Source: Chytridium lagenaria (taxonomy: Eukaryota; Chytridiomycota; Chytridiomycetes; Chytridiales; Chytridiaceae). Taken from it: DNA of 64,000 nt. Under the pieces are notes generated by a model. It saw only the letters and a program-made list of their open reading frames with translations, did no database searches and was not told where the DNA came from. Shown piece by piece: positions 48,696 through 64,000 of the stretch. The DNA lies in contig JAHLKC010000128.1 of assembly GCA_025449115.1 (NCBI GenBank), positions 55,299 to 119,298 on the forward strand. The letters run 5' to 3'. Each line of letters starts with the position of its first letter. The stretch's first letter is position 1. A program made the translations under genes and the position numbers.

Positions 48696-49147
48696 TGTTG
48701 AAGACTTGTTGTTCACGGGGCTCAATTAGAACAAAGTTAAACACACTTTTGCTCGAACAACGTTCTTGATTTATTTCGACTCAAAACGCGAGTCTTTAAA
48801 TACTCAAACAAAACGAACAAGAGGAAAGAGAACACAAAGGTAAACCTATGGGAGACGCGTATACTCAAGCGTTAAACTCTCCATTACAAAGATAAACAAA
48901 TCAGAGAGCCTTGACGGGAACAACGGGAATAGAGGCTAGAAGGGAATGTCCAATCACAGACAGGTAGAATTATAATTAAACTGGCATAAAGAAAATAAAC
49001 CAATCAAGGAAGGTAAATCAAATTGGGAAATTTAAATGAGTACAGAGAGTGAATTAGAAGTCCAGTGGGCGCGTTCGCGCTCAACTCTTACGACGCGTAA
49101 ATTCCAGAGCACTCTAGTGTTGCGCCCGACGCCGGGGACTAATGGTG
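48696..49147 (+). mobile_element. LTR family A, copy 2, truncated at its right end
   Basis: Starts TGTTGAAGACTTGTTGTTCA and follows copies 1 and 3 up to GGACTAATGGTGC, where the last 40-50 bp (GAGTGATCC to the CA end) are missing. The left edge falls right at the 5' end of the Lys/Glu-rich gene. Confidence 0.7.
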
Positions 49148-49929
49148 CTTAACTTTACCTCGTTAAGCTTCGTTTTAAGCGAAGATCGAGTCTTTGGGTC
49201 CAATTGTCGCATCCGATGTTATGCTCTTAAGCATCTGGGCGAAGGAACCCTTAAAGGCACCCTTCACTCCAGAACTTGCAGCTCATCCCGGCATTAACTC
49301 AAACTTAAGCGGTGGCAACTTCAAGAATGCTGCGATGAAAGTTAATGTAAAGCTTAACTTAATGTTTGTATATACTTTTCCCTGTACACATTGGTAGTCT
49401 TGTGATATTCCTCACGACGACTGACGGCAGGTTCGAGATGCTAACGACGGCGGATGCTGATGCAGAGGTGGAGGATTGAACTTTAAAGTCAAAGCCTTGC
49501 ATGGCACTCGCAGTCAACTTCAAAAGTATTTCTTCATTTGTAATACGGAGTGCGAAACTCAAAAACGGGCATCGGAGTCCGTGACCACCACTACTCCTGT
49601 CCATGAGTTGGTCGGGAGGTCTCGGTTGGAGCATGGACAGTACATTCTTTTTCTTTTGTCAAATTCTCTTCTTCTGGTATCGGATTTTTTTAGAATATGA
49701 TGGTATCACATGGCCCAGCACGTACGTTGACAATCTTGTTTGAAAAAGAGAACATTTGCTAAAAAAGGGCTAAAAAAATTGCTAAGTCCCTCTTGGCCGT
49801 ATCCGCATGGGTACGTCTTTCTTGACCATAACCGCACGTGTACGCCCAAAGATGTCCAATTTATTAAATATGTTTTAAACCATTTGTTATTGCAATTGAT
49901 AATTACCGAAGGATATTTAATATCGTAGC
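49148..49929. other. Unassigned stretch between LTR copy 2 and the copia element
   Basis: No supportable gene. It has AAGCTTAACTT-like motifs near 49150 and 49350 and no clear match elsewhere in the window. Confidence 0.35.
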
Positions 49930-49934
49930 CCTTT

Positions 49935-50330
49935 TGTAGGGGTTACGGGGCTCAATTGTAATTAAAATATAATGTATTAATAAAGAGAATTAAAGTATAA
50001 AAGGGTGATGGAGTCTCCAGCGGTGACAGGGAGGTAATTATACGAAACTTCCATATATTATTCTAACTACTTTCGCAATACATGTAGAGGGTGGGGATTT
50101 ACATCAGAACTCATGATCCGTAAATCCCTCCAAATTACGTATCATAAATTAAACATAAAGTAATAAAGTTAAAGGGATTAACGCATCCTCAAATGGAATG
50201 AGAAGCTTAATAAACTGATCAACTCAAAACTTAAATAACGCGTAAATAAATAGGTTCGGGGGAAAAATGACTTAGACAAAATAACGAATGTGGGTGAGTG
50301 AAACAAAATAGAAAGATGATAAACCCAACA
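49935..50330 (-). repeat. 3' LTR of copia element 1
   Basis: 396 bp, TG...CA ends, matched by 56796-57195. The adjoining minus-strand purine tract is the likely plus-strand primer. Confidence 0.93.
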
Positions 50331-50653
50331 TTCTCCCCTCAGCTTTCTAACCTTTGCAGTTTTAATCAACCACTTTAACCATCCCAAACTTTGCTCGTAA
50401 CTCTTCGAATTTCGGTCGAGGCAAAGCTTTCGTAAACAAGTCTGCAGGTTGCTCTTTCGTGTTCAGGTACTCCACGCGTATTTTCTTCGCGTTAACCCTA
50501 TCTCGTATGACGTGGAACCTTCTATCCACGTGTCGCGAGCTTTGCGATATTATCGGCGTGCTGGCGAGGGAATTTGCTGTCGTGTTGTCGCCTAAATCAC
50601 CGGAGGATCATTAAACGTATAACCCAACTCCCCCAGAAGTTGGCTGACCCATA

Positions 50654-51879
50654 TCATATGTGACGATGCTCACTAAGTGAAACATATTCAGCTTCGGCGG
50701 TAGACTGAGCCGTCGTTGCTTGCTTCTTCGTTCCCACACCACAGCTCCCCCATTCAAAGTAATTACAAATCCACTTGTTGACTTCATATGTCCGGATCAG
50801 TTTCCCATGTCGGCGTCTGCATATCCCACCAATTCCAGCTTGTCCTTTCGAGTATACTGAATGCCCAGCTGCTTCGTTTGCTGTAGGTAACCACACGTTC
50901 GGTAAAGCGCATCCCAATGCGCTGGGTAAGGGTTCTCTTGAAACCTAGCGCTCATCCCGAGCGCGAATGCTATATCAGGTCGAGTCCCAATCATCGCATG
51001 CATCAAGGATCCAGTTGTACTGTCGGTATCCTTGATTCTTCTCGTTCGTTTTCATTATCTCCCCTTCCATGTTCTTCAGGAGTTTCTTCACGGCGTCCAT
51101 TGGGGTATAGTGTAAAAGAGTTTTCGGTAATTCCAGCTTTTGACCCATCGTTTCGATGTATCTCTGCTGGAACACCACAATCTTCCCTTTTATACGATCA
51201 TAGCGACATTGCCACCCCAGGACGTATCGAAAACTTGGAGCTCTTGTACCTCGGTAACGTCTCATGAATCGTTTTTCTGATCGATCTAATTCCTCCTTGC
51301 TCGTCGACGCTTCTATGATATCATCAACGTACACTCCCTTCAAGGTGAGATCCTTGCCGTTTCGCTTGTAATAAAGACACGGATCCGCCGCTGAGCGAGT
51401 AAACTTCTCCTCGTCGACTTGGAGCGTGTTCAAGTCGGTGTTGAAACACATTGGTGCTTGAACGAGTCCGTAGAGACTCTTCATGCACAGGCACACCCAG
51501 TCTTCCTTCCCTTCAACGACGAATCCTTCAGGCTGTTCAATATATATCTCATGATCTTCCAACTTCCCATTCAAGAACGCGGTCTTGACGTCGTATTGTC
51601 GAATCTCCATGTTTTCTTGACAAGCGACCGCAAGCATCACTCTCAACGTCGCTTGCTTGATGACGGGTGCGAATTTCTCGTCATAGTCGATTCCTTGTTT
51701 TGCGAGTAACCTTTAGCAACAAATCTCGCTTTTCGTTTATCGAGATTTCCCAACTCATCTCGCTTTGTTTTGTACACCCATCCTGATTTAATAATCTTTC
51801 TCCCTTTAGGTCGGGGAACCAACCTCCATGTTCCCATCTCAACTAAACTTTTCATTTCTCCTCCATCGCTTTCCTCCAC
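50654..51879 (-). CDS. Copia reverse transcriptase and RNase H region
   Basis: RT motifs in order: SLVEMGTWRLVPRPKGRKII, KSGWVYKTKRDELGNLDKRK, IRQYDVKTAFLNGKLEDHEI (first catalytic Asp), MKSLYGLVQAPMCFN, then VYVDDIIEA holding the YVDD active site. Next are SFRYVLGWQCRYDRIKGKI and the connection segment GTRPDIAFALG. RNase H follows with VGYADADMG and STAEAEYVSLSE, the conserved Asp and Glu. Frame breaks near 51690, 50990 and 50815 separate the pieces. The region is otherwise well conserved and nearly identical to the copy at 63400-64000. Confidence 0.88.
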
Positions 51880-52337
51880 TCGTCCTTCTCCTTCCTACCC
51901 ATCGCTTCCTGGTAGGTCTTTGGTTCGTCGTCATCTTCTAACGATGCCGTGTTTGCTGATGGTCTAACCGTCCAAAACTCTCCAGGCTTCTTCTTGTTCC
52001 GTGATGACCTTCGAAGGGATGTTTCGTATGGCTCATCCAGGTCTTCACGGAAGTTTGGAACTCTTCTTCCACCGGATCGACGAACCGTAGGTGAGTGAGG
52101 TTCCTCTCTTTCTTCATCTTCATCGTCGTCGCGATCGGGTGTATGATAACTAACATTATCATCTTCGTCATCTTCAGACTCTTCGTCATTACGCCGTGTC
52201 AACTTCACTTCCACCAGAGCTTGACGAGTCTGTAGAGTAATCCGGTAAGTCTAGGTCGTTTTTCCATTCTTGAACCTCCCCTTCAAACTTTGATTCTCCC
52301 TTCTCTGCTTCCGCCGCCATTACTCCCTCGTTAAAAA

Positions 52338-53053
52338 TCACTGACTTGCTTCTAACCAACTTATTCGTTTGCAAATCCCAAAGGCGATAGCCCAGCGGCT
52401 CATACCCAACGAGAGCACACCGTCGTGCGTTAAATCTCCCTTCTTTCGTTGCTGCTTGGGTATCAAGACGAGTGCCAGGCAACCCCAACCACGAAGTCTC
52501 GACAAGTCAGGTTTCACTCCAGCGAATCTCTCAAGCGGCGTTGCATCTTGTTCGTTCGTTCGGGTTGGTGATCGGTTAATGAGGTAAGCTGCAGCCATCA
52601 CGGCTTCACCCCAAAAACGCGTTTCGAGTTTTGAAGAACTTAACATGCTTTTAGACCTCTCGTTCAAGGTCCTGTTCATCCGTTCGGCAACACCGTTCTG
52701 TTGCGGTGTGTACGGCATGGTGAAGTAAGTCGAATCCCATGCTCTAAGCACCAATCCTTCATTAGTTTGTTGTTGAATTCGCCGCCGTTGTCTGCCACGA
52801 TTTCAATGAGCTTCCTTTTGATTTTCTTCTCGGCTTCTTCTTTAAAACTTTTGATGAACTTGAATGACTCATTCTTCTTCTTGCACAGGTAAACGGTAAC
52901 GTAGTTTGTCGCGCTGTCGACGATGGTGAGGAAGTAACGTGCGCCGCCATTTGACGCGGTCTTCATAGGTCCAACGATGTCGACGTGGATTTTCTCGAGA
53001 GGCTCCTTGGCTTTCAACTCGTCGGGTTTGTCAGGAAATGATGTCCTTGTCAT
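52338..53053 (-). CDS. Copia integrase core
   Basis: The DDE core is complete: HVDIVGPMKTASNGG (first Asp), IVADNGGEFNNK (second Asp) and QQNGVAERMNRTLNERSK (Glu), with FWGEAVMAAAYLINRSPTR downstream. One frame break lies near 52740. The N-terminal zinc-binding part (WHLRMGHLGKKG and CEGCVDGK) is upstream and is present in three copies because of the triplication. Confidence 0.88.
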
Positions 53054-55953
53054 TTTCCCATCAACACAACCCTCACACAGGTAAGTGTCTCTTCATTCGT
53101 CATCTTGACCCCTTCGCTACCTTCATTAACTTCTTCACTCCCTTCTTTCCTAGATGACCCATCCGCAAGTGCCACTGGTGCGGTGTCAGAGACTTCTCGA
53201 CCTTTGCTGAGGCGTGCTTGGCTTGAATTCGATGACTTGATCAAGGTAAATGAGATTCTCTTTGCTGCTGTAGGTAACGTTGCAAGTGCTTGTGCTGACG
53301 GTTCTTTCTTTGGTTTAAGGTCGTATCCGTCGTCCTTCGGGAATATGTCAAGATCCTTCTTTCTCGCCATCCCAAGCGAGATCAGGTTCCGTCCGATGTT
53401 TGGTACGTATAACACGTTCTTGAGTATTAACGTTCCTGTTCTTTCGCCGTTTCTAATCTTCACTTCACAGTCACCAACTCCACGGGATTCAAGATTGCTG
53501 TTGTTGTCGGCAGTGCTGATGTTGCACTGGATGGAGCGGTAGTTCGACAGGATGTTGCGCTGGAACGTCATGTGGTGAGTGGCTCCAGAGTCTAACATCC
53601 ATCTGGTGTCTCTAGTCTGCGGACCGCCTTCCGAGCTCATGTTGACGGTAGGTACTGCTGCAACGAATACCACAGGATTTCCTCCGTTGTTGTTGTTCTG
53701 ATTGTTGTTTTGGTTTGCCAGGTTTGCATTAGGTCCTCGATTCCAACCACCTCGGCCTCGACCTCCTCTTCCGCGTCCTCCTCGACCACGGAAACCACCG
53801 CGACCTCTTCCACGGTAAAAACCTCTTCCTGCAGCCGCAGGTTGAGCTTGGGTTCGTTGTCTCTTTCATTTCTGTTGTCGTTATTTCTTCTCGCGCTCCA
53901 ACAGTCTCTTAAACGGTAACATAGTTTGTCGCGCTATCGACAATGGTGAGGAAGTAACGTGCGCCACCGTTTGACGCAGTCTTCATAGGTCAACGATATC
54001 GACGTGGACTTTCTCGAGAGGCTCCTTGGCCTTCAACTCGTCGGGTTTGTCAGGAAATGATGTCCTTGTCATTTTCCCATCAACACAACCCTCACACAAG
54101 TAAGTGTCATCTTCATTCGTCATCTTGACCCCCTTCGCTACCTTCATTAACTTCTTCACTCCCTTCTTTCCTAGGTGACCCATCCGCAAGTGCCACTGGT
54201 GCGGTGCCAGGGCTTCTCGACCTTTGCTGAGGAAGTGCTTGGCTTGAATTCGATGACTTGATCAAGGTAAATGAGGTTCTCTTTGCTGCTGTAGGTAACG
54301 TTGCAAGTGCTTGTGCTGACGGTTCTTTCTTAGGTTTCAGGTCGTATCCGTCGTCCTTCGGAATATGTCAAGATCCTTCTTTCTCGCCATCCCAAGCGAG
54401 ATCAGGTTCCGTCCGATGTTTGGTACGTATAACACGTTCTTGAGTATTAACGTTCCTGTTCTTTCGCCGTTTCTAATCTTCACTTCACAGTCACCAACTC
54501 CACAGGATTCAAGATTGCTGTTGTTGTCGGCAGTGCTGATGTTGCACTGGATGGAGCGATAGTTCGACAGGACGTTGCGCTGGAACGTCATGTGGTGAGT
54601 TGCTCCAGAGTCTAACATCCATCTGGTGTCTCTAGTCTGCGGACGCCTTCCGAGCTCATGTTGACGGTAGGTACTGCTGCAACGAATACTACAGGATTTC
54701 CTCCGTTGTTGTTGTTCTGATTGTTGTTTTGGTTTGCCAGGTTTGCATTGGGTCCTCGATTCCAACCACCTCGGCCTCGACCTCCTCTTCCGCGTCCTCC
54801 TCGACCACGAAAACCACCGCGGCCTCTTCCACGGTAAAACCTCTTCGTGCAGCCGCAGGTTGAGCTTGGGGTTCGTTGTCTCTTTCATTTCTGTTGTCGT
54901 TATTCTTCTCGCGCTCCAACAGTCTCTTAAACGGTAACATAGTTTGTCGCGCTATCGACAATGGTGAGGAAGTAACGTGCGCCACCGTTTGACGCAGTCT
55001 TCATAGGTCCAACGATATCGACGTGGACTTTCTCGAGAGGCTCCTTGGCCTTCAACTCGTCGGGTTTGTCAGGAAATGATGTCCTTGTCATTTTCCCATC
55101 AACACAACCCTCACACAAGTAAGTGTCATCTTCATTCGTCATCTTGACCCCTTCGCTACCTTCATTAACTTCTTCACTCCCTTCTTTCCTAGGTGACCCA
55201 TCCGCAAGTGCCACTGGTGCGGTGCCAGGGCCTTCTCGACCTTTGCTGAGGAAGTGCTTGGCTTGAATTCGATGACTTGATCAAGGTAAATGAGGTTCTC
55301 TTTGCTGCTGTAGGTAAACGTTGCAAGTGCTTGTGCTGACGGTTCTTTCTTAGGTTTCAGGTCGTATCCGTCGTCCTTCGGGAATATGTCAAGATCCTTC
55401 TTTCTCGCCATCCCAAGCGAGATCAGGTTCCGTCCGATGTTTGGTACGTATAACACGTTCTTGAGTATTAACGTTCCTGTTCTTTCGCCGTTTCTAATCT
55501 TCACTTCACAGTCCACCAACTCCACAGGATTCAAGATTGCTGTTGTTGTCGGCAGTGCTGATGTTGCACTGGATGGAGCGATAGTTCGACAGGACGTTGC
55601 GCTGGAACGTCATGTGGTGAGTTGCTCCAGAGTCTAACATCCATCTGGTGTCTCTAGTCTGCGGACCGCCTTCCGAGCTCATGTTGACGGTAGGTACTGC
55701 TGCAACGAATACTACAGGATTTCCTCCGTTGTTGTTGTTCTGATTGTTGTTTTGGTTTGCCAGGTTTGCATTGGGTCCTCGATTCCAACCACCTCGGCCT
55801 CGACCTCCTCTTCCGCGTCCTCCTCGACCACGAAAACCACCGCGGCCTCTTCCACGGTAAAAACCTCTTCGTGCAGCCGCAGGTTGAGCTTGGGGTTCGT
55901 TGTCTCTTTCATTTCTGTTGTCGTTATTTCTTCTCGCGCTCCAACAGTCTCTT
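52891..55953 (-). repeat. Tandem triplication of about 1,020 bp inside the copia element
   Basis: Units A 52891-53910, B 53911-54928 and C 54929-55953. Each runs, in element sense, from the Gly/Arg-rich tail of gag through the protease (LDSGATHHMTF) and GAG-pre-integrase zinc motif to the first integrase Asp. Both junctions have the same break, CAACAGTCTCTT joined to AAACGGTAAC, with almost no shared sequence at the crossover. Units B and C share variants (TGCCAG, CACAGGATTC, GATATCGACGTGGACT) that differ from unit A. Unit A instead agrees with the second copia copy at 61-62.4 kb (CACGGGATTC equivalent). Confidence 0.9.
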
Positions 55954-56678
55954 GCTAAGTGGCCTTTCTTTCCGCAATTGTAGCATTCTCGGTCCTCGCC
56001 GCCGCGGTGTCTTTGTTGTTGATTATTGTAGCGTCCCGCAGCGTGAGCCTGAGCGCCTTCGTTCTCTTCATTTTCTTTCTTTCTCTCTTTCAGTTTCGTT
56101 TCATGATCTAACAGTTTTCCAACGACATAGGCAAAGTCAGCCTCGGCTTTGGGTTCGTTCTCGAGGAGATTGACTATGATGTCGTATGCTTCCGGGAGGG
56201 TCGTCAAGAGGATGGAGATGTGTTGCGGGGTTGCCGTGTCTTCCCCCGCTGCCTTCAGTTGCTGAATGGTTGACGAGACCTCCGCGATGTAAGTCTTTAA
56301 GTCGTCTTCTTCTTTCATCTTCAAGTTCGTGAGTTTGCGTCTAATCGCGTTTCTGTTCGTCTGAGCCTTTCTTTCATAGGTCTCGATTATTTTATCCCAC
56401 GTCGCCTTTGCCGTGGATTCATCCCGTATCAACGGTAAGATGATGTCGTGAACTCTTGATTCGATTCTTGCTTTTGCTTTCATGTCCAGGTCTTCTTCTT
56501 CTAACCTAGTCTTCTTTTCGGCATTTGTAGGCGTGTCAACAACTGCATAGGGCGTCCAGCCCTTCTCGACGATCTTCCAAAGGCCTTTGCCTTTCAAGTA
56601 CCCGATCATGCGGTACTTCCAGATGTGGAACTGTGTCCCATCAAACATCACAGGTTTGTCGTCGCTCTCTTTCGTCAT
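55954..56678 (-). CDS. Copia gag (UBN2-type) with CCHC zinc knuckle
   Basis: Starts MTKESDDKPVMFDGTQFHIW, the typical opening of copia gag proteins, and runs unbroken through WDKIIETYERKAQTNRNAIR, TYIAEVSSTIQQLKAAGEDT and ILLTTLPEAYDIIVNLLENE. It ends at the knuckle CYNCGKKGHLARDC, where unit C of the triplication joins in the same frame (Gly/Arg-rich RGRGRGGFRGRGG). This frame stays open to about 55506, including the protease motif LDSGATHH, so gag and the first protease copy are fused. Confidence 0.88.
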
Positions 56679-57426
56679 CTTCTCGTGTTGACCGCTTTCC
56701 TTCTTTCTTGGGATGATCGCTCTTTTCTCTTTTACTCTTTGGCCCTCAAATGGATCGATTCACTCCTCCTTCCAACCAGGTGAAGTGCTACCACTTGTAG
56801 GGGTTACGGGGCTCAATTGTAATTAAAATATAATGTATTAATAAAGAGAATTAAAGTATAAAAGGGTGATGGAGTCTCCAGCGGTGACAGGGAGGTAATT
56901 ACTACGAAACTTCCATATATTAATTCTAACTACTTTTCGCAATACATGTAGAGGGTGGGGATTTACATCAGAACTCATGATCCGTAAATCCCTCCAAATT
57001 ACGTATCATAAATTAAACATAAAGTAATAAAGTTAAAGGGATTAACACATCCTCAAATGGAATGAGAAGCTTAATAAACTGATCAACTCAAAACTTAAAT
57101 AACGCGTAAATAAATAGGTTCGGGGGAAAAATGACTTAGACAAAATAACGAATGTGGGTGAGTGAAACAAAATAGAAAGATGAATAAACCCAACACCTTT
57201 AATTTATTGAAGTAAAAGTACTCAGATTACCCTTCACAATGCGTCAGCCCCAAACAGTTGTCTCCGCAATGTTTTTGAGGAAGATTTAGTGCTAAGAGGG
57301 ATTTCCAAGTAAAATTAATAGAGATAAATTATTTGCGGATACACTAAATAGAGATCCAAGTATAGACAAAAATTAATAGAGATGGGTAAATTTATCTAGA
57401 TATCGAACATCTCCGACGACGAATCC

Positions 57427-59008
57427 ATGTCCGTCGATGTAGTTTTTGCTCCCCAACAAGAGTCAAAGCTACCAAATCTGATGTTCCGGCCACCATTACG
57501 AACATCCCAGGTGGTTAAGAAGAGAGGCCGGAAGACGAATGCAGAGAAGGCAGCCTTGGAGGCTGCAGCTGAGGGGGAAACAATAATGTAAGGGAGTTCC
57601 TTTTTTCTATTACTCAAATTGAATACTTGTTGTTCACGGGGCTAAATTAAAACAAAGTTAAACGCACTTTTGCTCGAAACAACGTTCTTAATTTTTATTT
57701 CAACTCAACACACGAGTCTTTAAATACTCAAACAAAACGAACAAGTAAAGAGGAACGACAACACAAAGGTAAACCTATCGGAGACGCGTACACTCACGCG
57801 TTAAACTCTCCACTACAAAGATAAACAAATCAGAGAGCCTTGACAAGAACAAAGGGAATAAAGGCTAGAAGGGAATGTCCAATCACAAACAGGTAGAGTT
57901 ATAATTAAACTGGCATAAAGAAAATAAACCAATCAAGGAAGGTAAATCAAAGTGGAAATTCAAATGAGTCCAGAATGTAAATTAGAAGTCCAGTGGGCGC
58001 GTTCGCGCTCAACTCTAACGACGCGTAAATCCCAGAGCACTCTAGTGTTGCGCCCGACGCTGCGGACTAATGGTGCGAGTGATCCTGACGCGTCCTTGTG
58101 AGTCAAGTGAGCGAAACCCAACAACTCACACCTGTTACAACTCCTGCTCCTGCTCTTCAATGGTCGGATGAGATGACAGAGAAGCTTCTGGAGCTGCGCT
58201 TTCTCAAACACGAGAAATGTTTTGCTGATGCAAAGCAGCGCAACAGCCTCACTTTGGGTTGGGGCCGGGTTGCTAAGGACATCAATTTGATCTTCAACAA
58301 TCCTGGAGCTACTAGCGAGAAGTGCAAGTCGAAGATCAACAACTTGGTCACCCTTTACCGCAAGTTTCCAGAAAGCGGACATTAACGAAACTGGAAATAG
58401 GACTCTTACAATTCGTTGGTGGAGTACCTTCAGAACAAAGATGGCCTTGGCCAGGTTGATTTGGGTGATTCTGATAGTGGGATTTTTGGCTCGTTCTACT
58501 AATGATGACATTGGGGGTGGGGGAGGTGGAGACGGTGCATTTGACGGGTACGGTGACAGAGACGACGCGGACTCGGAGGATGTGTGTAGGGGGGGTTACA
58601 AGCCTTTTTCGCGGCAGCAGGAATACAGCACCCCAACATCCTCTGCAGCACCCTCACCTTGATTAGCATCAAACCGCTTCAGCAAGAAGCAGAAGATGGA
58701 TATGCCAGCATCAATAGCATCAATGGGGCAATCAATGCAACGAGGGATGGAATCTATGGCCACTGCTATCGCTTCTGGCAGTACTTCTCGAGTTGACGAC
58801 GTCACCAGAGCTGGTGAAAAAGGGTCAGATGGTGCAGGAAGACATGGTGGTTGGACTTAACTAAGTTAACAAAGGACTGGAAAGAGGGTTCACGAATTTG
58901 GATGCGGGGTTGAAAGAAGGATTTGCAGCGTTGAAGGATGTGACAACGAAATCTCTGGAAATTTAAAGTGCTTTATTGGAGGCCATTAAACAGTTGGGCA
59001 ATCGCTAG
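57427..59008 (+). pseudogene. Harbinger accessory SANT/Myb-like protein gene, interrupted
   Basis: Exon 1 starts MSVDVVFAPQQESKL and includes an AT-hook-like VVKKRGRKTNAEKAAL. It ends at a GTAAGG donor, and the intron contains the inserted LTR 57617-58123. Exon 2 resumes with PALQWSDEMTEKLLELRF, LTLGWGRVAKDINLIF and CKSKINNLVTLYRKF, a trihelix/SANT DNA-binding fold with its conserved Trp residues. After a one-base slip at about 58370 it reads ADINETGNRTLTIRWW, an acidic Gly-rich stretch and a helical C-terminus. In this superfamily the partner protein brings the transposase to the ends and into the nucleus. Splicing across the LTR might still work, but the frame is broken. Confidence 0.7.
57617..58123 (+). 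mobile_element. Solo LTR, family A, copy 3, nested in Harbinger intron
   Basis: 507 bp matching copies 1 and 2, ending GCGAAACCCAACA. It is flanked by the perfect 5-bp duplication ACTCA (57612-57616, 58124-58128), proving insertion followed by LTR-LTR recombination. The first two bases read AA instead of TG. Confidence 0.88.
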
Positions 59009-59105
59009 CTTCTTTGGTTTTGGAAGATAAGCTGCATTTTCAAATAAATATTGTTTTATCACATCTTGTTGTACTTTAGCTTCGTCCCATCAACTGCTCC
59101 AAGTA

Positions 59106-59824
59106 TTATCTCTGGCAGAGCCACTGGCCAGATCCTGGCCGGATGGCATGGCTGCGGATCATCCTTTTGTAGTCAACCACAATCTGTACGTTGATGGCCG
59201 GATACCCCTTCCGACAGTACCAGCCCTCATATTGATTTGGTCTTTCAATTTCGAAAAGGGAACCATCCACCGCAAGAGTAGCGTCAGGAAATCCCGCAAC
59301 CTCCTCAAAACCTCGAGCAAGTTCTTGCCATTCTTCGTATGTTGTTAGCTTGATGTACTCCTGGCGAACATGAACCAACACGTTGATGACCTGCCAAAGG
59401 TAGCGATGGGCAGATGTGTGCTCATCCCCATGAAGGCAGCAGAATCACAAAGCGAGCCACCGTGCGTCAAGTAATGCAGCGCTACTGCAAACCGCTTGCG
59501 GATTGGAAAATACGCGTTCCAATGAGGAACAGGATTCACTTGAGACCATGGACGTTCAACTACAGCAGCAATGGCATCAAAGGTCTCCTTGTTGCAGCGA
59601 AAGTACTGCCGAAACCAGCCTTTATGCAACAGCGATTGCGGATCACCATTCGCAACGTCGAACGGTGTCACTCGAATGGTCTTCTTTGTGGTATTTGGCC
59701 CTCAGTTATATCGGCCATCCGAATGAGTGGCAAGACCGACAACTGTTGCAAAGGCTGCATTGGTTACAGCCATGACGGATGCCAGCACGGCAGCGTGTTC
59801 TCTGTTTATTGATGATCGAGGCAT
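59106..59824 (-). pseudogene. Harbinger transposase (DDE_Tnp_4), C-terminally truncated
   Basis: The minus-strand frame from ATG 59824 (MPRSSINREHAAVLASVM) passes into FDVANGDPQSLLHKGWFRQY, RKRFAVALHYLTHGGSLCDS and AAFMGMSTH, the helix-turn-helix part. The nuclease fold follows: ATLAVDGSLFEIERPNQYEG (first Asp), YPAINVQIVVDYKRMIRSHA (second Asp) and RPGS. The frame stops there, so the distal part that normally carries the third acidic residue and the VERxFG-like motif is missing. One-base breaks lie near 59700 and 59385. It cannot be an active nuclease as it stands. Confidence 0.8.
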
Positions 59825-60148
59825 GGATACAAACAAGGTGAAAAACAAAAGGGAAATGCAGGAGTCGTCGGTGATGCAGCGTGATACAAGAGTGGAAATA
59901 GAGATGAATTGGACGAAATAGAGATAATTTCAAAAAAAATAGAGATGGCAGAATTATGATTGGCTGCCCGAGAGATAGAGATAAATTATTTTTTACTTGG
60001 AAATCCCTCTAACGGAGCGGAAAAAGCGCATTGCAGGCGATGCCAGAGCGTTAAACTCTGCCAATGGTACGTACGAGCATCCACTCATTGAGAGCTTTCT
60101 AATGATATAACACACAAATGCCGAACATGTCTGTCCGCATTTGGTTTT

Positions 60149-60541
60149 TGTTGGGTTTATTCATCTTTCTATTTTGTTTCACTCACCCACATTCGTTATT
60201 TTGTCTAAGTTATTTTTCCCCCGAACCTTTTGACGCGTTATTTAAGTTTTGAGTTGATCAGTTTATTGAGCTCCTCATTCCATTTGAGGAAGCGTTAATC
60301 CCCTTAACTTATTACTTTATGTTTTATTTATGATACGTAATTGGAGGGATTTACGGGTCATGAGTTCTGTGTAAATCCCCACCCTCTACATGTATTGCGA
60401 AAAGTAGTTAACATTAATATATGGAAGTTTCGTAGTATTACCTCCCTGTCACCGCTGGAGACTCCATCACTATTCTTTATAGTTTAATTCTCTTTATTAA
60501 TAATTATAATTTAATTACAATTGAGCCCCGTAACCCCTACA
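60149..60541 (+). repeat. 5' LTR of copia element 2
   Basis: 393 bp, TGTTGGG to CCCCTACA, homologous to the reverse complements of 49935-50330 and 56796-57195 but with more substitutions, for example GAGCTCCTCATTCC where element 1 has an AAGCTTCTCATTCC equivalent. Confidence 0.9.
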
Positions 60542-60642
60542 AGTGGTTGGAAGGAGGAGTGAATCGATCCATTTGAGGGCCGAAGAGTAAAAGAGAAAAG
60601 AGCATTATCCCAAGAAAGAAAGCAAGCTGTCAACACGAGAAG

Positions 60643-61370
60643 ATGACGAAAGAGAACGACGACAAACCGGTGATGTTTGATGGGACACAGTTCCACATCT
60701 GGAAGTACCGCATGATCGGGTACTTGAAAGGCAAAGGCCTTTGGAAGATCGTCGAGAAGGGCTGGACGCCCTATGCAGTCGTTGACACGCCTACAAATGC
60801 CGAAAAGAAGACTAGGTTAGAAGAAGAAGACCTGGACATGAAAGCAAAAGCAAGAATCGAATCAAGAGTTCACGACATCATCCTACCGTTGATACAGGAT
60901 GAATCCACGGCAAAGGCGACATGGGATAAAATAATCGAGACCTATGAAGAAAGGCTCAGACGAACAGAAACGCGATTAGACGCAAACTCACGAACTTGAA
61001 GATGAAAGAAGAAGACGACTTAAAGACTTACATCGCGGAGGTCTCGTCAACCATTCAGCAACTGAAGGCAGCGGGGGAAGACACGGCAACCCCGCAACAC
61101 ATCTCCATCCTCTTGACGACCCTCCCGGAAGCATACGACATCATAGTCAATCTCCTCGAGAACGAACCCAAAGCCGAGGCTGACTATGCCTATGTCGTTG
61201 GAAAGCTGTTAGATCATGAAACGAAACTGAAAGAGAGAAAGAAAGAAAATGAAGAGAACGAAGGCGCTCAGGCTCACGCTGCGGGACGCTACAATAATCA
61301 ACAACAAAGACACCGCGGCGGCGAGGACCGAGAATGCTACAATTGCGGAAAGAAAGGCCACTTAGCAAGA
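60643..61370 (+). pseudogene. Gag of copia element 2, frame-shifted
   Basis: Nearly identical to element 1 gag through WDKIIETYE, then one extra base at about 60950 shifts the frame. The downstream frame resumes MKEEDDLKTYIAEVSS and continues through CYNCGKKGHLARDC. A second shift near 61430 replaces the Gly/Arg-rich tail by a Glu/Val-rich reading (TEEEVAVVSVVEEDAEEEVE). Confidence 0.8.
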
Positions 61371-61600
61371 GACTGTTGGAGCGCGAGAAGAAATAACGAC
61401 AACAGAAATGAAAGAGACAACGAACCCAAGCTCAACCTGCGGCTGCAGGAAGAGGCTTTTACCGAGGAAGAGGTCGCGGTGGTTTCCGTGGTCGAGGAGG
61501 ACGCGGAAGAGGAGGTCGAGGCCGAGGTGGTTGGAATCGAGGACCTAATGCAAACCTGGCAAACCAAAACAACAATCAGAACAACAACGGAGGAAATCCT

Positions 61601-64000
61601 GTGGTATTCGTTGCAGCAGTACCTACCGTCAACATGAGCTCGGAAGGCGGTCCGCAGACTAGAGACACCAGATGGATGTTAGACTCTGGAGCCACTCACC
61701 ACATGACGTTCCAGCGCAACATCCTGTCGAACTACCGCTCCATCCAGTGCAACATCAGCACTGCCGACAACAACAGCAATCTTGAATCCCGTGGAGTTGG
61801 TGACTGTGAAGTGAAGATTAGAAACGGCGAAAGAACAGGAACGTTAATACTCAAGAACGTTATACGTACCAAACATCGGACGGAACCTGATCTCGCTTGG
61901 GATGGCGAGAAAGAAGGATCTTGACATATTCCCGAAGGACGACGGATACGACCTTAAACCAAAGAAAGAACCGTCAGCACAAGCACTTGCAACGTTACCT
62001 ACAGCAGCAAAGAGAATCTCATTTACCTTGATCAAGTCATCGAATTCAAGCCAAGCACTTCCTCAGCAAAGGTCGAGAAGACTCTGACACCGCACCAGTG
62101 GCACTTGCGGATGGGTCATCTAGGAAAGAAGGGAGTGAAGAAGTTAATGAAGGTAGCGAAGGGGTCAAGATGACGAATGAAGAGACACTTACCTGTGTGA
62201 GGGTTGTGTTGATGGGAAAATGACAAGGACATCATTTCCTGACAAACCCGACGAGTTGAAAGCCAAGGAGCCTCTCGAGAAAATCCACGTCGACATCGTT
62301 GGACCTATGAAGACCGCGTCAAATGGCGGCGCACGTTACTTCCTCACCATCGTCGACAGCGCGACAAACTACGTTACCGTTTACCTGTGCAAGAAGAAGA
62401 ATGAGTCATTCAAGTCATCAAAAGTTTTAAAGAAGAAGCCGAGAAGAAAATCAAAAGGAAGCTCATTGAAATCGTAGCAGACAACGGCGGCGAATTCAAC
62501 AACAAACTAATGAAGGATTGGTGCTTAGAGCATGGGATTCGACTTACTTCACCATGCCGTACACACCGCAACAGAACGGTGTTGCCGAACGGATGAACAG
62601 GACCTTGAACGAGAGGTCTAAAAGCATGTTAAGTTCTTCAAAACTCGAAACGCGTTTTTGGGGTGAAGCCGTGATGGCTGCAGCTTACCTCATTAACCGA
62701 TCACCAACCCGAACGAACGAACAAGATGCAACGCCGCTTGAGAGATTCGCTGGAGTGAAACCTGACTTGTCGAGACTTCGTGGTTGGGGTTGCCTGGCAC
62801 TCGTCTTGATACCCAAGCAGCAACGAAAGAAGGGAGATTTAACGCACGACGGTGTGCTCTCGTTGGGTATGAGCCGCTGGGCTATCGCCTTTGGGATTTG
62901 CAAACGAATAAGTTGGTTAGAAGCAAGTCAGTGATTTTTAACGAGGGAGTAATGGCGGCGGAAGCAGAGAAGGGAGAATCAAAGTTTGAAGGGGAGGTTC
63001 AAGAATGGAAAAACGACCTAGACTTACCGGATTACTCTACAGACTCGTCAAGCTCTGGTAGTGAAGTTGACACGGCGATTAACGACGAAGAGTCTGAAGA
63101 TGAGAAGATGATAATGTTAGTTATCATACACCGATCGCGACGACGATGAAGATGAAGAAAGAGAGGAACCTCACTCACCTACGGTTCGTCGATCGGTGGA
63201 AGAAGAGTTCCAAACTTCCGTGAAGACCTGGATGAGCCATACGAAACATCCCTTCGAAGGTCATCACGGAACAAGAAGAAGCCTGGAGAGTTTTGGACGG
63301 TTAGACCATCAGCAAACACGGCATCGTTAGAAGATGACGACGAACCAAAGACCTACCAGGAAGCGATGGGTAGGAAGGAGAAGGACGAGTGGAGGAAAGC
63401 GATGGAGGAGAAATGAAAAGTTTAGTTGAGATGGGAACATGGAGGTTGGTTCCCCGACCTAAAGGGAGAAAGATTATTAAATCAGGATGGGTGTACAAAA
63501 CAAAGCGAGATGAGTTGGGAAATCTCGATAAACGAAAGCGAGATTTGTTGCTAAAGGCTACTCGCAGAAACAAGGAATCGACTATGACGAGAAATTCGCA
63601 CCCGTCATCAAGCAAGCGACGTTGAGAGTGATGCTTGCGGTCGCTTGTCAAGAAAACATGGAGATTCGACAATACGACGTCAAGACCGCGTTCTTGAATG
63701 GCAAGCTTGAAGATCATGAGATCTATATCGAACAGCCCGAAGATTCGTCGTGGAGGGGAAAGAAGACTGGGTGTGCCTGTGCATGAAGAGTCTCTACGGA
63801 CTCGTTTCAAGCACCAATGTGTTTCAACACCGACTTTGAACACGTTCCAAGTCGACGAGGAGAAGTTTACTCGCTCAGCGGCGGATCCGTGCCTTTATTA
63901 CAAGCGAAACGGCAAGGATCTCACCTTGAAGGGAGTGTACGTTGATGATATCATAGAAGCGTCGACGAGCAAGGAGGAATAGATCGATCAGAAAAACGAT
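61601..64000 (+). pseudogene. Protease-integrase-RT of copia element 2, several frame breaks, partial
   Basis: Contains in order TRWMLDSGATHHMTFQRN (protease), the GAG-pre-integrase LPQQR/HLRMGHL region, integrase HVDIVGPMKTASNGGARYF, ADNGGEF, GVAERMNRTLNERSKSMLSS and RT SLVEMGTWRLVPRPKGRK to VYVDDIIEAS. Breaks lie near 61860, 62060, 62415, 62900, 63110, 63540, 63740 and 63810. The sequence ends inside RT at the window edge. Confidence 0.85.

What the first reader, a model, noticed from the sequence alone, without database searches (positions are those of the whole stretch)
52891..55953. Perfectly bounded tandem triplication of gag-tail/protease/integrase-N inside one copia element
Three units of 1020, 1018 and 1025 bp share identical junctions joining a gag zinc-knuckle break to an integrase break, with almost no homology at the join. 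The element would carry three protease motifs and three GAG-pre-integrase zinc motifs between intact LTRs with a target duplication. This suggests either a template-switch event during reverse transcription that was then inserted as such, or expansion after insertion. A retroelement with repeated protease cassettes would be unusual.
Basis: seen in the sequence. Interest (0 to 1): 0.75.

Follow-up and report, generated by a model that had tools for sequence, protein, structure and literature searches.

The report
Chimeric retrotransposon with triplicated internal segment
A jumping gene in what looks like a chytrid fungus carries the same one-kilobase stretch three times in a row, apparently because the enzyme that copied it hopped between two related templates and landed in the wrong place; it is a clear fossil of a known kind of copying error rather than a new kind of element.

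Summary
A minus-strand Ty1/copia element (49935-57195, two LTRs, 5-bp target duplication CCTTT) has three head-to-tail ~1-kb units with two identical junctions. Searches of the 41.9-Mb assembly found the junction nowhere else.

The units are not equal. u2 and u3 show no substitution between them; u1 differs from u2 by 26, while the two LTRs differ by one. u1, the integrase and part of RT (after 51424, to 53910) match a common lineage of the family; u2/u3, the RNase H region and the LTRs carry alleles rare in it. This change falls within 93 bp that contain the u1/u2 junction.

Best reading: reverse transcriptase copied two co-packaged RNAs, and a misplaced, non-homologous transfer made the duplication. 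A homologous slip added the third unit; whether before or after insertion cannot be told. The reverse order (triplication first, then a patch from the common lineage) is not excluded.

The period is 1024-1025 bp, not a multiple of three, so the junctions shift the frame: three protease motifs exist in DNA, not in one polyprotein.

An assembly error in unit number is unlikely but untested. A new variant of a known kind (template-switch chimeras), moderately interesting.

The parts
49930..49934 (.). target-site duplication CCTTT, left copy
   Evidence: empty-site paralogues
49935..50330 (-). 3' LTR (left on + strand), TG...CA
   Evidence: 1 substitution and 4 single-base indels against the other LTR
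50331..51424 (-). RNase H region (named by position) and end of RT, B-type (10 rare sites in 50331-51100, 2 at 51193 and 51424)
51425..52890 (-). rest of RT and C-terminal part of integrase, common (A) lineage; 0 rare sites
52891..53910 (-). unit u1 (integrase N part, GAG-pre-integrase, protease, gag tail), A lineage
53910..53911 (.). junction u1/u2, and place of the A/B change (bounded by 53829 and 53921)
53911..54928 (-). unit u2, B type
54928..54929 (.). junction u2/u3, same letters as u1/u2
54929..55953 (-). unit u3, B type, no substitution against u2
55954..56678 (-). gag up to the zinc-knuckle break (ORF 55506-56678 runs on into u3)
56796..57195 (-). 5' LTR (right on + strand)
57196..57200 (.). 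target-site duplication CCTTT, right copy

Best explanation
This copy was reverse-transcribed from two related element RNAs packaged together. Synthesis on a B-type RNA (LTR, RNase H region) moved to an A-type RNA inside RT (near or after 51424 on the + strand) by ordinary homologous transfer. It copied integrase and the protease segment (u1) up to the gag zinc knuckle, then jumped without homology back to the B-type RNA, landing 1 kb behind in integrase, and so copied the protease segment a second time before going on through gag. The chimeric cDNA inserted normally (target duplication, near-identical LTRs). The third unit came from a separate homologous slip between the now repeated segments, before or after insertion. 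Shown: the three units, the identical junctions, two sets of family alleles, their change at the junction, LTR and target-site anatomy. Inferred: that reverse transcription did it, the order of steps, and the source of the third unit.
For: u1 vs u2: 26 substitutions in 1014; u2 vs u3: 0 in 1017; LTR vs LTR: 1 in 396. Against 27 other copies, u1 is 1-4 substitutions from 8 of them, u2 at least 26 from each of the 27. u1 has the commoner state at all 26 differing sites; 17 of the 26 u2/u3 states occur in at least one of those 27 copies, so most are family alleles and not fresh mutations. 36 rare sites among 5834 testable; the longest rare-free run is 51424-53921, reached by 0 of 100000 shuffles. 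Its right end is at the junction. Tree: u2+u3 100/100, with copy L005 beside them at 88/88, u1 elsewhere. The family looks mosaic: 7 of 171 pairs of copies are at most 0.3% apart in one segment and at least 2% in another. Five of five paralogous host sites fetched are empty. The junction was found only here.
Against: An AU test does not reject u1+u2+u3 as one clade (p 0.139), and the fork that holds u1 is weak (63/87). No B-type donor copy is among the scored hits: the best others are 96% for u2, LTR and RNase H region and 98% for gag plus leader, gaps counted. The third unit needs a second event whose exchange point would have to fall near the unit's edge (about 93 of 1025 bp), since u2 is B-type throughout. 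Gag is only mildly B-like (7-9 substitutions in 727 to the nearest; 4 rare sites). No RNA pairing between the two break regions beyond control was found.
Confidence: 0.55

Rival explanations
1. Triplication first: an all-B element acquired three identical units by a B-to-B jump and homologous growth, and later an A-lineage stretch (RT, integrase, u1) was patched in by homologous template switching or gene conversion that ended at the end of homology.
For: Makes the likeness of u2 and u3 natural; homologous mosaicism is seen in the family; a patch can stop where homology stops.
Against: The patch must end within about 93 bp (53829-53921) at the junction by coincidence; no all-B copy with the junction was found in the assembly.
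Confidence: 0.25
2. DNA-level change after insertion: replication slippage or unequal sister exchange tripled the segment in place, and ectopic gene conversion from one of the many other copies changed u1 and its flank.
For: u2 and u3 are identical in substitutions; a second copy of the family lies 3 kb away on the same contig in opposite orientation (L010).
Against: Needs a non-homologous duplication, growth and a conversion tract of about 2.5 kb all since an insertion that left one LTR substitution. The u1/u2 divergence cannot have arisen in place by mutation alone.
Confidence: 0.12
3. Assembly expansion or chimera: the true element has fewer units.
For: The assembly has long-read-like noise: all 9 indel columns between u2 and u3 lie in runs of 2 or more; the contig ends in another copy of the family.
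Against: u1 and u2 are different sequences, so at least one junction joins two distinct units; u2 and u3 carry different indels, which a copied block would not unless corrected apart; in the 38 other places listed the 120-base junction query matches on one side only. A 3-kb array is short for long reads (inference; read type not known).
Confidence: 0.08

Closest known systems
Template-switching complex LTR retrotransposons of Triticeae (Sabot and Schulman 2007, PMC1950507; abstract and passages seen)
   Same: Chimeric element made from two RNAs in reverse transcription and inserted as such, with target duplication and matching outer LTRs
   Different: Those join two whole elements at the R region and have a third LTR inside; here an internal 1-kb segment is repeated with no internal LTR
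Homologous recombination among Onsen/Copia78 members in a transposition burst (PMC5668417; passages seen)
   Same: Mosaic daughter copies of one copia family
   Different: No internal tandem duplication in the passages seen; here one transfer is non-homologous
Retroviral non-homologous transfer and direct-repeat instability (review PMC3187697, passages; HIV-1 motif duplication model PMC12115494, passages)
   Same: Duplication by misplaced strand transfer; direct repeats change copy number
   Different: The motif duplication in the passage seen of PMC12115494 is 21 bp; here about 1025 bp, three units, in a natural fungal element

Membership tests
Ty1/copia LTR retrotransposon | two LTRs with TG...CA ends and a short target duplication | tested here: met
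   empty-site paralogues, 5 of 5 fetched
Ty1/copia LTR retrotransposon | order gag - protease - integrase - RT - RNase H, with copia-type domains | tested here: met
   Retrotran_gag_2, zf-CCHC, Pol_BBD, gag_pre-integrs (below its cut-off), rve, RVT_2 in that minus-strand order; RNase H was not tested by profile
Ty1/copia LTR retrotransposon | primer binding site matching a tRNA | not tested
   no host tRNA set compared; no tRNA gene found in the window
Template-switch chimera (Sabot and Schulman type) | target duplication plus matching outer LTRs | tested here: met
Template-switch chimera (Sabot and Schulman type) | parts from two different parent elements | tested here: met
   the AU clade test is not decisive (p 0.139)
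Template-switch chimera (Sabot and Schulman type) | third, internal LTR | tested here: not met
   the LTR repeat families (D4, D10) have two copies only, at the ends
Element with a triplicated protease in one polyprotein | repeat period a multiple of three | tested here: not met
   1025 of 1038 columns filled in more than half of 30 rows; units open end to end: 5 of 30, lengths 1025 (3) and 1024 (2); assembly noise leaves the exact period open

The most novel reading that the evidence does not exclude
The two identical junctions were made in one round of reverse transcription by repeated backward jumps between the same two sites, first A to B and then B to B, so that this copia reverse transcriptase has a hot spot that builds internal tandem arrays.
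Probability: 0.07. Interest if true: 0.55.

Novelty: new variant of a known kind. Interest (0 to 1): 0.36.

Why it matters
If the reading is right, the element is a natural record of a non-homologous strand transfer between two marked templates. Because the templates differ, the place of the jump can be read from the sequence. It bears on how often long internal duplications arise in LTR elements, and it warns that indel-noisy assemblies can show 'multi-domain' elements whose frames are broken.

Tried and rejected
Back-splicing or a circular RNA template as source of the repeated junction: read by eye, no GT/AG borders fit the two breaks; rejected. RNA pairing between the break regions: duplex energy -34.3 against a control mean of -41.4 (1353 pairs, 79% at or below the observed value), so weaker than most controls; rejected. 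Homology near the join: longest shared word 7 nt (TTCTTCT) in 40 nt, reached or passed by 460 of 4569 control pairs; weak. The same junction elsewhere: none (up to two mismatches, no indels, 120-base query, 40 of 179 candidates scored). A closer B-type copy elsewhere: none among the 40 candidates scored for u2, LTR, RNase H region and gag plus leader, of 159, 252, 207 and 152. Other copies with an internal backward shift: none seen among the 64 loci outside this element (some overlap; matches under 88% and joins with gaps over 40 bp not counted). One join is backward in number (gag to LTR start, L032) but fits a nested insertion. Found were four internal deletions (57, 235, 309 and 329 bp; the 235-bp one seen in two overlapping loci) and four joins of an LTR end to an internal position (reading these as nested insertions is mine). 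Clade test of u1+u2+u3: not rejected, told as evidence against. The mosaic count left out 8 of 27 copies (nested, gapped, cut or far off in gag); its 7 pairs share members (L030 in 4, L018 in 3), so they are not independent. One search failed on a script error; one search was run without turning minus-strand loci and is not used, one search replaced it. Paper searches for retrotransposons with internal tandem or duplicated protease segments: searches listed 4, 0, 0, 4 and 2 papers, none on this by title or abstract start; some searches were wider. This covers only the open library.

Full report
What is there. The window lies at 55299-119298 of contig C128 in a 41.9-Mb, 356-contig assembly. The best named protein matches are chytrid: gag to Dinochytrium kinnereticum at 42% identity over 58% of the query, and for a glucosidase-like host gene piece Chytriomyces hyalinus at 37%, the one hit of four that bears an organism's name. 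The host is therefore probably a chytrid fungus, which is an inference. A copia element lies on the minus strand at 49935-57195 with LTRs 49935-50330 and 56796-57195 and the target duplication CCTTT. Five paralogous host sites were fetched and all five are empty, with the flanks contiguous apart from a few substitutions and a 4-base difference beside the site. Pfam finds Retrotran_gag_2, a zinc knuckle, Pol_BBD, integrase core and RVT_2 in copia order.

The triplication. Three units of 1020, 1018 and 1025 bp stand head to tail with two letter-identical junctions. One base of microhomology at the join is chance level. The gag break falls inside the zinc knuckle, so only one knuckle exists; protease and GAG-pre-integrase motifs are present three times (motif labels recalled). 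The junction was found nowhere else in the assembly (up to two mismatches, 40 of 179 candidates scored). One search lists 42 matches to the unit, 3 of them in this element and one partial; 40 of 159 candidates were scored, so the family is larger.

The units have two origins. u1 against u2: 26 substitutions in 1014 aligned bases; u1 against u3: 27 in 1020; u2 against u3: none in 1017, only 9 single-base gap columns, all in runs of two or more equal bases, as in long-read consensus noise. The LTRs differ by one substitution and four single-base indels. Against 27 other copies, u1 is 1-4 substitutions from 8 and at most 25 from the rest, while u2 is at least 26 from each (these copies were picked by likeness to u2, so this is conservative). 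At 17 of the 26 diagnostic sites the u2/u3 state occurs in at least one of the 27 copies; copy L005 shares six of the seven between sites 649 and 913 of the unit. Most are thus alleles of the family. The tree joins u2+u3 with 100/100 and places L005 beside them at 88/88; u1 sits elsewhere, but the fork that holds it is weak (63/87). An AU test does not reject u1+u2+u3 as a clade (p 0.139).

The change of origin sits at the junction. Counting sites where this element carries a base seen in at most 10% of aligned copies gives, per segment: left LTR 3 of 396, RNase H region 10 of 768, RT 2 of 800, integrase 0 of 990, u1 0 of 1020, u2 14 of 1018, u3 14 of 1025, gag 4 of 727, 5' leader 3 of 115, right LTR 4 of 400 (seven loci of this element dropped, overlapping loci of one copy counted more than once). 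Without u3 and the right LTR there are 36 such sites among 5834; the longest free run is 51424-53921, and 0 of 100000 shuffles reach it (the shuffles place sites evenly). The last site at which u1 shows the common state against u2/u3 is 53829 and the first B site in u2 is 53921, so the change lies in 93 bp that hold the junction 53910/53911. The left change, in RT near or after 51424, leaves no structural mark. In the gag segment the B signal is weak (7-9 substitutions in 727 to the nearest copies).

Mechanism. Growth from one unit to two by plain copying after insertion would make u1 and u2 equal at birth; their 26 differences, at all of which u1 keeps the commoner state and u3 goes with u2, cannot have arisen by mutation while the LTRs gained one. 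The simplest account is reverse transcription on two packaged RNAs, with a homologous change B to A in RT and a misplaced, non-homologous change A to B from the gag knuckle to integrase. The family looks mosaic in the way such switching predicts: 7 of 171 pairs among 19 copies (8 of 27 left out) are at most 0.3% apart in one of three segments and at least 2% in another, though the pairs share members. The review PMC3187697 (passages) gives 3-12 template switches per genome per cycle for retroviruses, non-homologous recombination at least 1000-fold rarer than homologous, and copy-number instability of direct repeats. The third unit then needs homologous growth. Because u2 is B throughout, the exchange would have to fall near the unit's edge; this is why the reverse order (three B units, then an A patch that ends at the end of homology) keeps real weight. 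I could not date the third unit relative to insertion.

Coding. 1025 columns are filled in more than half of 30 unit rows. Of 30 units, 5 are open end to end in one sense frame, three of 1025 and two of 1024 bp. Neither length is a multiple of three, so the second unit is out of frame with the first. The assembled units are further broken by single-base indels: u1, u2 and u3 have 5, 3 and 5 stops in their best frame.

Known context. Sabot and Schulman (PMC1950507, abstract and passages) described inserted template-switch complexes, 2 in a table of 400 LTR retrotransposon insertions in Triticeae sequences, recognised by target duplications and an internal third LTR. This element shares the logic but has no internal LTR. 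PMC5668417 (passages) reports recombination among members of a copia family in a transposition burst. PMC12115494 (passages) models motif duplication by HIV-1 reverse transcriptase; PMC3248453 (passages) notes a copia invasion in the chytrid Batrachochytrium dendrobatidis. My searches for an internal tandem duplication in an LTR element listed none by title or abstract start.

Verdict. Real in the sequence, two parents, probably a reverse-transcription accident with a further copy-number step; a new variant of a known kind.

Noticed in passing
60149-64000: A second copy of the same copia family in opposite orientation (LTR 60149-60537, unit 61367-62382), in which the contig ends; 4 substitutions from u1 in the unit.
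   Followed up: partly
57295-60010: Perfect 20-nt inverted repeats enclosing a Myb/SANT-like ORF and a below-cut-off DDE_Tnp_4 match: a likely PIF/Harbinger-type DNA transposon (the type name is recalled).
   Followed up: partly
48698-49148 and 57619-58076: About 450-bp dispersed repeat, 93% alike between these two places, 40 places scored in the genome of 265 candidates, some pairs 4-5 kb apart: probably solo LTRs of a second LTR family.
   Followed up: partly
L005, L012, L019, L032: LTR ends joined directly to internal positions of the same family; fits insertions of family members into one another.
   Followed up: partly
49149-49934 and 57196-57300: The insertion site lies in an older dispersed sequence with five further long copies at 82-84%, all five empty at this site.
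   Followed up: yes
window and loci of the family: Close copies often differ by more single-base indels than substitutions (9 against 0 for u2/u3), which suggests uncorrected long-read noise and broken frames in the assembly.
   Followed up: partly
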